From: Pilasporangium apinafurcum
Taxonomy: Eukaryota > Oomycota > Peronosporomycetes > Pythiales > Pythiaceae
Length of the DNA: 31,837 nucleotides
Direction: 5' to 3'
Assembly: GCA_001600495.1 (NCBI GenBank)
Contig: BCKE01000041.1
Location: forward strand, 1-31,837
Shown here: piece by piece, positions 4,999 through 29,177 of the stretch
Numbering within the stretch: the stretch's first letter is position 1
Layout of the letters: each line of letters opens with the position of its first letter
Made by a program: the position numbers and the translations under genes
Notes under the pieces: generated by a model
Told to the model about the DNA's origin: nothing
Seen by the model: the letters and a program-made list of their open reading frames with translations, nothing else
Database searches by the model: none

Positions 4999-5725
4999 TT
5001 TACACCGTTGAAGATTTCAAACGCCCAGGACGTTCTAAAAAAACAATGTTCGGGCATCTCAGTCCAGTGTAAATTATGGTTCTATGCTGTCGACGCAACA
5101 GCACTGTCTGCTGGCGGCAGTCGTGTCTGATGGCTCAGATACTTTGGTCGCTCTCCTCCTTCCAGAGCCTGTCTTGTGAGGCGAGCTATGTTGATTGAAG
5201 AGTTGACATCTCGGTTCCACAGCCTATGACACTGTTGGCATAGCAATAGACCGTGTACAAGTCGGAGTTGTCTGTCTTCGTCAGCCTTTTTGGTGTTAGG
5301 GTCCAGCCTGACACGAAACTTCTCGTACTTGGCACCCTCGACTTGGCAGTGAGAGCACTGACATCTGGTCTTGACAATTTTGTAGTACGATAGGTCGGAG
5401 GTCGATCCTCGAACTCCATCCAACTATAGTCCCATGTTAGATTTTTATTTCCGACGGATTTATGCACCACCGGGGGTCTTGGCTACCAGAAAGTACCTGG
5501 CCGACCACTTGGCGTTGCGTTGGTGTTCGGTGTGCTGCCACATGTAGTAGAGCTTGGTTACTCCTCGAGCCACTGATAGTCAGCACCACTTGGTGGAGAC
5601 AGGGTCTTTCGTCCTGGGAATGAGAGTGTACGAGAAATAATGCCTTATATGGTATCAGTTCAAGGGTCAACATCAACAACCAGGGGCCAGGTCCCCTGGG
5701 CGTTTGAAATCTTCAACGATGTAAA
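4999..5725. mobile_element. TIR-bounded element carrying a Fanzor relic
   Basis: A 31-bp inverted repeat with one mismatch frames a degraded Fanzor. The left arm is 4999-5029, containing CCGTTGAAGATTTCAAACGC. The right arm is 5695-5725 and reads the same from the other side. Both arms run outside-to-inside from TTTACA to CCCAGG, as expected of transposon termini. The element is 727 bp. I see no target-site duplication and no separate DDE transposase, so it is probably an internally deleted, non-autonomous copy. Confidence 0.65.
5082..5650 (-). pseudogene. Degraded Fanzor (TnpB-like RNA-guided nuclease) C-terminus
   Basis: Reading minus, one frame from about 5650 to the stop at 5082 encodes a recognisable Fanzor/TnpB C-terminus interrupted by several stops (near 5595 and 5405-5460). 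The open last part (5423-5082) has a four-Cys zinc finger, CQCSHC then LLLCQQC. The RuvC-III signature NRDVNSSINIARL follows, then GGERPKYLS, a tail resembling that of long Fanzors. Upstream pieces such as YYMWQHTEHQRNAKW are in the same frame. RuvC-I and the N-terminal half are absent. The frame lies inside the 31-bp TIRs, with its stop 52 bp from the left arm. It is dead as a protein; whether any guide-RNA function survives is unknown. Confidence 0.72.
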
Positions 5726-26138: not shown

Positions 26139-26214
26139 TGTGGGATAAATGTACTCCAGAAGGCAAGGCTACTTAATCAAGCACCTAATAAGTACGGTTA
26201 CGCATCGCCATTGT

Positions 26215-26278
26215 TAGCCTTTATTCCCTATATGTTCTGTACCACGCGTGGTACAGAACATATAGGGAATAAAGGCTA
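26215..26278. repeat. Perfect 64-bp palindrome next to the Fanzor 3' end
   Basis: Two 32-base arms are exact reverse complements with no spacer, centred between 26246 and 26247 (CACGCGTG). The outer ends are TAGCCTTTATTCCC and GGGAATAAAGGCTA. Partial similarity of the arms continues a few bases beyond. It lies 43 bp past the Fanzor stop codon (reading minus), where TnpB/Fanzor guide RNAs and element right ends normally map, and 76 bp upstream of the ZSWIM7-like start codon. It could be an element terminus, an RNA hairpin, or an assembly or replication artefact. Confidence 0.9.
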
Positions 26279-26321
26279 CACATCCATTTCTGGAATCATA
26301 GCAATGAGATCGTTTATCACC

Positions 26322-27746
26322 TCAGTTTTTGATTTCGAGTACCAATTCATTCTTTTTCCTCGTGAACACCTCGAGTCTCCTCTTTTCCTTCACTTCGTCG
26401 ATGAATAGCCTCAAAATGTTTATTGCGGCGTTGATGTCACGGTCCCACAATGTGCGATGATATTCACTATTTTTGCAGTATCGCACATTATAAAGACCCT
26501 TACCGCCAATTTTTTCGTCAAGGATGGACCCCTTCATCTTCTTGTGACAAGCACAACACAGCTTGCTCGTCCTGAACTCGTCCACATCAACAACACGACA
26601 CCTGGAACCAATTTTCTTCCGTAGGGTCATTATGAGAACATTAATGTTGCCTTTAGCTGAGCTTGTGAAACTTGCATCTCCATATGCAATAACGGTTCGT
26701 TTATTACCATCTGTAAGGCTCTTGACTACCTTTTCGTACACTTGTTAACGACGGGTGTAGGCCGACAATCGTAGCCTCTTCATCTTCTTTGATGAATACA
26801 CGTCAAGAAGACGATCCAAATACACGAGACAAAATCTCACCCGTTTCAAATAGGAGNCAAGGNTCGCAANTTTTGCCGAANGANCNTTTTCATTGAANGT
26901 TTTGATGTNAGNCTCNGCATCAATCCACTCTTTCGTCAACTTTGTTCGTCTATGGTAGCCGCACTCTCTGTAGAAACGACCCTTCGACCAGTGGATGACT
27001 TCATGTTTCACGTTCTCTCCTTTCGGTTTTTGCAGCATAGTCATGCTTTCCTCTTTGTAGACAACAGCAGTGAAAATCTTCTTTCTTCCCGGGTCCAAAC
27101 CGATGATCCGGTCTTCAAGAGAAAATGTCTCTTTTTGCTCTCTCACGGGAAGCTTTGGATGAGTGACTGCCACACTAACTGACATACCGTCGGTCGAGAT
27201 GAAGTGCTCAAACTCCTTTCGCTGAGCTATGATCACAAGACCTATATTGAAGTACATGTGCCATAACTCAGCTTTGTCGACGTAAAGCTCGACAGGATCA
27301 CTCAAAGCCTTAGCAAGTTCCTTCAGGACGGTGGTGTTGATCTTGATGAAAATGGGTCTGAAGTGTTTCTGTGGAAGCAGCGACCAGACTCGGCAACCCT
27401 TCATTCCATCATCCACGTGAGCTTGTATGTCTTTCAACATTGTGCGGAGAAAGGGCATGTGACGTTCCGGTGATTTGTTCGAGTCGAGTGGCGGCGATTC
27501 GATCTCGTTTCTCACTCTATCCGATAATTCCTGCATCCAAACAATCTCCTCAGTAGGGATGGGATACTTCTTGAACCTGGAGTACGTGGGCATCAGGTTG
27601 GATAAGCTATACTGAGTTTGGGTGCTTCCATAGACCAGCAGTGAAATAGCACTCTTGATTATTTTGTCTTGGTGCTTTTCAAAATAATCCCTGTCGTGAA
27701 CGAGAGTTGCAAATATAGTGTGAGACGGTAGGTTCCGGAAGCGCAC
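26322..27746 (-). pseudogene. Fanzor (eukaryotic TnpB homologue) with one in-frame stop
   Basis: A single reading frame runs from 27746 to the TGA at 26322, broken only by one TAA at 26745-26747; downstream codons continue in the same frame. Numbering from 27746, a WED-like N-terminal half contains CRVWSLLPQKHFRP (118-131), then RuvC-I IIGLDPG with D218, VIAYGDASF (352-360), DEFRTSKLCCAC with E390, C397 and C400, and RuvC-III DRDINAAINI with D437. Fanzors are RNA-guided DNA nucleases related to TnpB and Cas12. The second zinc-finger pair has decayed: the expected CKNxxCH is CKNSEYH (Cys to Tyr at 429). About ten ambiguous bases lie at 26857-26916. The start is unclear: 27746 is GTG with a stop two codons upstream, so the true N-terminus is missing, spliced or frameshifted. 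Confidence 0.85.
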
Positions 27747-28140
27747 ATTTGGTCAGAACACTATTAACAGTTCAAAAAAAGATAGAGACCTCTGGACCAT
27801 CAAGTTAAATTGGTAGAAGGAATGCTTAGCAATAAGAATACATAGCTGTTTACAAATGGATAATCAGTAGGTAGTTCAAACCAGAAACACGATCACTTTC
27901 CAATTGCCCACGTACCTTACAATCTCTACACGTCAATATCGTTAGAACTATTTGTCGCCCTGCAGAAAGTGAAATAGCGGAAGAATCCTCAGAATCTACT
28001 CTTTTATGCCAAGTAGAGTGCTCGTTGCTAAATCCAGTAGAAACTAACACTGTAAAAGAGAATGTACTTCTGGTAGTACACTTGAGGAAAAAAGGTTAAA
28101 ACACTCTAATTGCTCACCATTGTCCGCCCTCATTCATCCA
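27747..28140. other. Upstream flank of the Fanzor frame, no gene
   Basis: This is AT-rich DNA 5' of the Fanzor frame. A possible splice acceptor (TTAATAG, near 27763 reading minus) could join a missing Fanzor 5' exon, but I found no convincing N-terminal coding sequence. No counterpart of the 64-bp palindrome is present here. Confidence 0.35.
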
Positions 28141-28150
28141 ACACTAATAC

Positions 28151-28215
28151 TGTAATGGGTCTCCATTACATAGCAGACCCAGCGGGTCTGAAAACGGATA
28201 AACCCGAACGGGTTT
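28151..28215. repeat. Three tandem perfect short hairpins
   Basis: Three consecutive perfect stem-loops sit within 65 bases: TGTAATGG-GTCT-CCATTACA (28151-28170), CAGACCC-AGC-GGGTCTG (28174-28190) and AAACCCG-AA-CGGGTTT (28200-28215). The loops are 4, 3 and 2 bases. They could be a structured RNA, a transposon terminus, or the 5' edge of an LTR (starting TG). No coding frame explains them. Confidence 0.7.
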
Positions 28216-28353
28216 GATAAAGTACGATTTCTTACTATGTGTGGGAAGGTGAACTTCTGCTAGGTGCGGTAGTTCATTGTTTACGGTTACGTTCGAATTG
28301 GACACTTGAACATCAGTCATTCATTTCACTCTAGGTAGCTTTATTAAAACAAT

Positions 28354-28750
28354 AGTGGTTCTCAAGATTGGCAGCAAGTTAGGTAGCAGCTAAATTGTGC
28401 TGAAAAAAGCATAGCAAATTAGATCTGATTGGTAGTTATTCATTTTCACTTTTAGCTGCTGCCTCTCCAATAGCTGCCACGAAAATCAGGCAATTAACGG
28501 AGGCTCGACAGCTAAAAAGATGGAAACCAAGAGTGCTAAGGAATCCAAATGCATTGACCCAAAGAGTCAAGACTACGAACACTGCAGCCATGAGAATGAC
28601 TCCCAAGAGATCCTCCCCGCTGTTCCTACAGAGAAACTGAAGAGAGCACGTCGTATAGGATGGAATTCTCAAAGTTAATCATTTTTAATTGGCCAAAAAA
28701 TGGTCGCTTTTTAGCTGCCACCTAACTTGCTGCCAATCTTGAGAACCACT
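28354..28750. mobile_element. 397-bp inverted-repeat DNA element
   Basis: A 40-bp terminal inverted repeat with one mismatch bounds the element. The left end starts AGTGGTTCTCAAGATTGGCA at 28354; the right end is its reverse complement, finishing at 28750. The flanks allow a TA duplication (TA immediately outside GTGG...CCAC) or AAT on both sides. The right end, extended to about 70 bp, recurs as a solo fragment at 1838-1907, so this is a family. The interior has short open frames on both strands (for example 28436-28672 minus) with no recognised transposase. It is probably non-autonomous. Confidence 0.8.
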
Positions 28751-29177
28751 AATAATTCAGTTCCTAATTTTCCTCCAAAAGAGTAAATTTCTTTCCTTTC
28801 CTCTTAATTGACGACGTCCGTCGCCAATCTATTGCGCTTCCTCACTGCACAACAGTATACTCCTGTAAAAGGGTTACCATTTTACATCTTGTGCACACTT
28901 GTAACAGTTCTTCGCCTGGCCTTGAGTTTCTGTGTTTTTCCGCATACGTGATCTCCAACCTTGAGTTGTCCCATCAGTATTTGTCGTATTTTGACGGCAG
29001 AAACAGTGCTGACAAACCTGAAATCTACTTTATTTTATCCAATAGGAGGCATCCACAAATTTGCTCTCACAACTAACTAATAACGGTTTCAATGTTGTAC
29101 AAGTGGGGAATAAAGGTTAAATACGTTCCAAGCTACACTATTTGTTGTGTAGGTTACGTCTCCTCAGTATTCCGTGA
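28751..29177. promoter_or_regulatory. Upstream region of the SANT/Myb-like gene
   Basis: This is AT-rich non-coding DNA. At 29106-29116 it shares the 11-mer GGGAATAAAGG with the arm of the 64-bp palindrome, probably by chance. No gene is supported. Confidence 0.3.

What the first reader, a model, noticed from the sequence alone, without database searches (positions are those of the whole stretch)
26322..27746. Fanzor RNA-guided nuclease one stop codon away from an open frame
The frame holds RuvC-I (GLDPG), the DEFRTSK motif and RuvC-III (DRDINAAINI) in one phase, interrupted only by TAA at 26745-26747. Only one stop means recent death, a consensus error, or a recoded stop. Fanzors are programmable eukaryotic RNA-guided DNA nucleases; few oomycete examples have been described in detail.
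Basis: partly seen in the sequence, partly recalled or inferred. Interest (0 to 1): 0.85.

Follow-up and report, generated by a model that had tools for sequence, protein, structure and literature searches.

The report
Fossil copy of a Fanzor transposon
This is a worn-out, shortened copy of a jumping gene that once encoded an RNA-guided DNA cutter, one of a large family of mostly broken copies in this small genome, so it is real but is not a nearly working enzyme.

Summary
The frame is real and is a Fanzor1 relative, on the minus strand (27746 to 26322), with one TAA at 26745-26747. "One stop away from an open frame" is misleading. The genome holds at least 150 C-terminal matches, the window's included. 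Long relatives encode 633 codons; this copy lacks about the first 175, the part in which solved Fanzor1s read the target-adjacent motif. It has also lost the fourth zinc-finger cysteine and holds ten unresolved bases. The same stop occurs in 5 of 46 copies, four of them one clade, so it is no evidence of recent death. None of 23 distinct long copies read is open. Copies form a star-like tree with weak residual selection. The carrier has TTTAACC...GGYTAA ends with long palindromes, perfect 32-bp arms at the 3' end here. Filled and unfilled sites point to insertion at TTAA, the motif that GtFz1 reads, though a clean TTAA duplication is not shown. No transposase with these ends was found. Best reading: a non-autonomous, TTAA-targeting Fanzor1 transposon family, now largely fossil. 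New member of a known kind; the palindromic ends and possible TTAA coupling are the interesting part.

The parts
26748..27746 (-). Middle part of a Fanzor1 frame (333 aa): WED-like segment with TDG motif (from 27194) and RuvC-I GLDPG (D codon 27095-27093)
26745..26747 (-). In-frame TAA; a stop stands at the same codon in 4 other copies of 46
26322..26744 (-). C-terminal part: alternative RuvC-II Glu (26579-26577), zinc finger with Tyr (26462-26460) where relatives have the fourth Cys, RuvC-III (D codon 26438-26436)
   Evidence: Pfam PF07282 E 2.8e-8
26857..26916 (.). Ten unresolved bases (N), 10 of the 11 in the window
26215..26278 (.). Perfect 64-bp palindrome (32-bp arms) at the 3' end of the element; candidate hairpin of a right-end RNA and/or transposase site
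26214..28100 (-). Short-type element, TTTAACC...GGCTAA, without the N-terminal coding part
26214..29121 (-). Longer unit with an outer 5' end (29121-29094). The outer part recurs in L014, L016, L020, L021 and L028; of these only L016 and L028 also have the stretch with the inner 5' end
28353..28751 (.). MITE-like insertion with 42-bp terminal inverted repeats inside the longer unit
   Evidence: unfilled site in L020 and L021

Best explanation
A decayed, N-terminally truncated copy of a Fanzor1 gene carried by a non-autonomous DNA transposon family that looks to have amplified in an old burst. The long form encoded a roughly 633-residue Fanzor1 between palindromic ends and inserted at TTAA. Inferred working of the ancestor: a transposase supplied in trans moved the element; an RNA from the 3' end (hairpin, TTAA, then flanking sequence as guide) led the Fanzor to the empty TTAA site, whose cleavage let the element be copied back. 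Shown: protein family, truncation, shared stop, palindromes, element ends, TTAA at filled sites. Inferred: RNA, TAM, transposase, copy-back. The window copy cannot do this itself.
For: Fanzor1: PF07282; SpuFz1 is the only PDB sequence reached by a profile at E up to 0.01, E 1.9e-5, TDG aligned; DPG and Ealt spacing. Family size: at least 150, 126 and 123 matches for three query pieces. Truncation: long copies run 633 codons; similarity of the short type starts at about residue 176 of the long frame, with stops upstream. Shared stop: 5 of 46 copies; 4 of 5 form one clade, support 89/93. Decay: tip branches median 0.053; dN/dS median 0.52 against 0.61-0.79 in the other five frames; 0 of 23 long copies open. 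Ends and target. TTAA is a known Fanzor1 TAM (GtFz1: passages of PMC10432273, and PMC11423790).
Against: dN/dS below the frame controls leaves room for some copies having worked until later. Only well-matching copies were read, so an intact full-length copy elsewhere is not excluded. A TTAA duplication is not clean: the window, L053, L055 and L060 have TTAA at 5' but CTAA at 3', and only 3 of 7 unfilled relatives of one site have a TTAA there. No transposase with these ends was found. The SpuFz1 alignment is weak (best stretch E 2.5e-4) and does not pair the two RuvC-I motifs. The fifth stop-bearing copy, L013, falls outside the clade.
Confidence: 0.85

Rival explanations
1. Recently killed, otherwise working Fanzor: a single new nonsense change in a gene that worked until lately.
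For: Only one stop between 27746 and 26322; catalytic D, E and D positions kept.
Against: A stop at that codon is in 5 of 46 copies; N-terminal part absent; zinc-finger Cys lost; tip branches near 5%.
Confidence: 0.04
2. Assembly or consensus error: the stop and Ns come from collapsed repeat copies.
For: 10 of the window's 11 Ns lie in one 60-base stretch inside this frame; 2 of the 20 loci also have clusters of 12 and 16 Ns.
Against: A stop at the same codon stands at four other places, three on other contigs and one further along this one; an error would not explain the missing N-terminal part.
Confidence: 0.07
3. Recoded or read-through stop in a working gene.
For: Family similarity resumes directly after the stop.
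Against: Copies hold TAA, TAG and TGA, stops at many codons, and frame-breaking indels in 16 of 23 long copies, as in decay; sense codon in 40 of 46 copies.
Confidence: 0.02
4. The carrier moves by a single-strand (HUH-type) route using its terminal hairpins, TTTAA being the target and the 3' YTAA part of the element.
For: Palindromes at both ends of long copies; TTTAA kept at 5' ends, and 3' ends read GGYTAA with C in 12 of 35; TTAA at 5' with CTAA at 3' in the window and three other loci.
Against: The outer ends are inverted copies of each other, as in cut-and-paste elements (82% over 22 nt in the window). No HUH enzyme was looked for, so its absence is not shown.
Confidence: 0.2

Closest known systems
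Spizellomyces punctatus Fanzor1 (SpuFz1, PDB 8gkh)
   Same: Profile match from the WED segment to the zinc finger, TDG motif, D-E-D layout
   Different: Low similarity; this copy lacks the N-terminal part and has a stop; SpuFz1 reads CATA
Guillardia theta Fanzor1 (GtFz1)
   Same: Its TAM, TTAA, is the tetranucleotide at this element's insertion sites. One sentence of the passage gives the two TAMs in the other order; the mutation data there and assign TTAA to GtFz1
   Different: No sequence comparison was obtained here; the TAM of this family is untested
Fanzor1 elements of ascoviruses and baculoviruses (SFav-1 and kin)
   Same: 4-bp TTAN target duplications; the SfAV element encodes only the Fanzor, and its terminal repeat and duplication are predicted parts of the right-end RNA
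   Different: 13-bp TIRs there; long near-perfect palindromes here
Fanzor1 families of Albugo laibachii listed by Bao and Jurka 2013
   Same: The paper's table lists two Fanzor1 families in that oomycete; its genome is put at about 37 Mb, 36.5 Mb here
   Different: Sequences not seen; identity with this family and the species of the window are untested

Membership tests
Fanzor1 | DPG motif at RuvC-I | tested here: met
   GLDPG in the window, though not in all relatives: L019 and L060 differ there; criterion from passages of PMC10711439
Fanzor1 | Alternative RuvC-II glutamate six residues before the first CxxC | tested here: met
   E-FRTSKL-CCAC
Fanzor1 | TDG motif in the WED domain | tested here: met
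   FISTDGMSVSV; aligned with SpuFz1 TDG
Fanzor1 | C4 zinc finger between RuvC-II and RuvC-III | tested here: met
   Met by relatives L028, L019 and L060; the window copy has Tyr in place of the fourth Cys, so this copy itself fails
Fanzor1 | Length around 600 or more with N-terminal REC/WED part | tested here: met
   Met by the long copies (633 codons, none of 23 open); the window copy itself fails
Fanzor1 | Right-end RNA and RNA-guided DNA cleavage | not testable with these tools
   No RNA data; the 3' hairpin is only predicted
piggyBac superfamily | TTAA target duplication (recalled) | tested here: inconclusive
   TTAA at both junctions of L022 and L058 and once in 3 of 7 unfilled relatives; CTAA-type 3' ends in 12 of 35
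piggyBac superfamily | Transposase of that superfamily in an element with these ends | tested here: inconclusive
   Three PF13843 places in the genome; none of these ends in the 801 and 1001 bases read around the upstream side of two; third place and downstream sides unread. Not filed here
Fanzor2 / IS607 | Serine recombinase partner and GG core | not tested
   No search was made; the TDG motif and element ends point elsewhere

The most novel reading that the evidence does not exclude
A Fanzor1 transposon lineage in which TTAA is both the insertion target and the target-adjacent motif, with self-complementary palindromic ends that serve at once as transposase sites and as the hairpin of the guide RNA, so that broken copies moved in trans could be kept going by a few working copies elsewhere.
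Probability: 0.25. Interest if true: 0.55.

Novelty: new member of a known kind. Interest (0 to 1): 0.35.

Why it matters
It turns a claimed near-intact Fanzor into a well-described fossil, and points to a family of more than a hundred copies with defined ends and filled and unfilled sites in which the link between insertion target, TAM and guide RNA can be tested. Truncated copies sit at many different sites, so the N-terminal part of the protein seems not to have been needed in cis for spread (inference).

Tried and rejected
Rejected: recent death, recoding and a copy-specific sequencing error (see rivals). A piggyBac partner was sought with PF13843: three places, no matching ends in 801 and 1001 bases on the upstream side of two. 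Close relatives of the C-terminal piece in viral contigs: two pattern matches, no relative. PDB search with the first 334 aa of L047: none; with the window's middle piece: none; with its C-terminal piece: only Cas12g at E 0.17-0.19. Literature searches: 'Fanzor oomycete' (9 papers), 'Fanzor Albugo', 'Fanzor piggyBac', 'Fanzor, omega RNA, TAM, eukaryotic, transposon' (25 of 39 listed), 'Fanzor TTAA', 'Fanzor, non-autonomous, copies, palindromic' (10 of 165 listed), and two on Albugo genomes. No listed title is about this family. Seen of papers: PMC3627910 abstract, passages and section 12; PMC10711439 passages and section 28; PMC10432273, PMC11423790 and PMC3130010 passages only; the rest listings. 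The species was not established.

Full report
What is there. The C-terminal stretch matches Pfam PF07282 with E 2.8e-8; the middle stretch has no Pfam match. Of the seven rows of alignment A1 (five relatives and the two window pieces), five match PF07282 at E up to 0.1; L028 is below the curated cut-off. A profile of A1 reaches one PDB sequence at E up to 0.01, Spizellomyces punctatus Fanzor1, E 1.9e-5 overall and 2.5e-4 for the best stretch; it pairs the TDG and DE(F/Y)xTS motifs but not the RuvC-I motifs. DPG, a glutamate six residues before the zinc finger, and TDG are the features that PMC10711439 gives for Fanzors and Fanzor1s; the window has all three. So Fanzor1 is right.

How broken it is. 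The window copy is not one change from a working gene. Long copies continue upstream in frame to a methionine followed by a basic stretch; in L047 the frame is 633 codons with two stops of its own. The window copy is of a short type: similarity to the long frame begins at about its residue 176, and sequence upstream is different and has stops. It thus lacks about the first 175 residues. In solved Fanzor1s, residues in the corresponding range contact the TAM (SpuFz1 R96, Q129, N133; GtFz1 S123, H126, Y130); the correspondence is inferred from position only. The fourth zinc-finger cysteine is tyrosine, and ten of the window's eleven Ns fall at 26857-26916.

The stop is shared. Of 48 distinct copies aligned, 46 have that codon: 5 have a stop (window, C14:545k, C41:51k, C10:288k, C50:199k), 40 a sense codon, 1 is ambiguous. 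Four of the five form a clade (89/93); the fifth, L013, lies elsewhere, so the label needs two changes on the tree. L013 shares the neighbouring residues, which suggests exchange between copies. The next codon is a stop in three other copies, and long copies share stops at several codons, so recurrence at hot codons may contribute. Either way the stop is no sign of recent death.

State of the family. At least 150 C-terminal matches were scored from 496 candidates, 126 for the middle part from 315 and 123 for the long N-terminal part from 298; the tool calls such counts lower bounds. Of 27 loci tried, 25 covered over 85% of the long frame, 23 of them distinct; 0 of 23 are open, each with 1-5 stops, 16 of 23 also with a frame-breaking indel. 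Over the core frame, 1 of 46 copies has neither stop nor frame-breaking deletion: L028, which is the reference row and itself short type (insertions were not counted there). Four of 46 have no internal stop. The tree is star-like, median tip 0.053, with 11 of 43 inner branches well supported. Pairwise dN/dS has median 0.52 over 1035 pairs of 46 copies; the same count in the five other frames gives 0.61-0.79, so only weak constraint remains. The copies were chosen as good matches to the window, which biases them towards well-kept ones.

The carrier. Element ends are TTTAACC(TTT)ATTCCCC... and ...GGGGAATAAAGGYTAA; a 5' terminal pattern with up to one mismatch occurs 140 times in the genome against 0 for the reversed control, and a 3' type pattern 62 times against 0. 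Long copies have a palindrome at the 5' end too. In the window the 3' palindrome has perfect 32-bp arms, and its RNA fold lies 12 standard deviations below shuffles. Among 35 distinct 3' ends, 17 have the standard length; 4 of 17 are perfect, and arms match within a copy better than between copies (0.917 against 0.888, 0 of 2000 shuffles as high), with two-sided changes at several pairs. This can come from selection on structure, from relatedness of copies, or from hairpin-templated repair.

Target. L022 and L058 lie at the same place of a host repeat. Both have TTAA at both junctions; of seven unfilled relatives of the site, three have a TTAA there and four do not. Against a clean duplication, 12 of 35 3' ends read C at the first base of TTAA, and the window, L053, L055 and L060 have TTAA at 5' and CTAA at 3'. 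TTAA targeting is likely; duplication is not settled. GtFz1 needs a TTAA TAM, and PMC10711439 reports that target duplications are predicted parts of Fanzor1 right-end RNAs. That makes TTAA as TAM an attractive, untested inference.

Surroundings. The window copy is a short element (28100 to 26214) within a longer unit (29121 to 26214). The outer part recurs in L014, L016, L020, L021 and L028; L016 and L028 also hold the stretch with the inner 5' end, while L014, L020 and L021 lack it. The unit carries a MITE-like insertion at 28353-28751, absent from the same site in L020 and L021.

Known or new. Bao and Jurka (PMC3627910; abstract, passages and one section read) describe Fanzor1 in several transposon superfamilies and list two families in Albugo laibachii; PMC10711439 notes elements reaching hundreds of copies. 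A high-copy, non-autonomous Fanzor1 family is thus a known kind. The searches named in Tried and rejected listed no title on one with these palindromic TTAA ends, but lists were partly capped and supplements were not read.

Noticed in passing
window 5085-5423 (minus): C-terminal fragment of a second Fanzor-like family (PF07282 E 2e-4, below cut-off); 137 matches in the genome, roughly in two tiers, one mostly at 59-99% and one at about 28-41% identity, so perhaps three such families in all.
   Followed up: partly
G000 C17:147950-148948, C94:12758-13753, C94:58675-59670, C53:32784-33782, C4:752228-753214, C34:91250-92245, C1:874632-875603, C4:688717-689703: Recurrent internal-deletion form: N-terminal 209-215 residues next to the C-terminal part, without RuvC-I, in open frames of 350-395 codons without stops at these eight places; other members of the form have stops. 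Perhaps only shorter and so less often hit, but a nuclease-dead form that keeps its frame deserves a look.
   Followed up: no
window 28353-28751: MITE-like element with 42-bp terminal inverted repeats; unfilled site in L020 and L021.
   Followed up: partly
G000 C5:658288-659460: piggyBac-like transposase gene in an open 546-codon frame, without this family's ends in the 801 bases read on its upstream side; possibly domesticated.
   Followed up: partly
L047-type and short-type elements: The same Fanzor body is joined to different 5' parts, and the shared stop occurs in both types (L002 and L064 long; L001, L003 and L013 short), which suggests exchange between copies.
   Followed up: no
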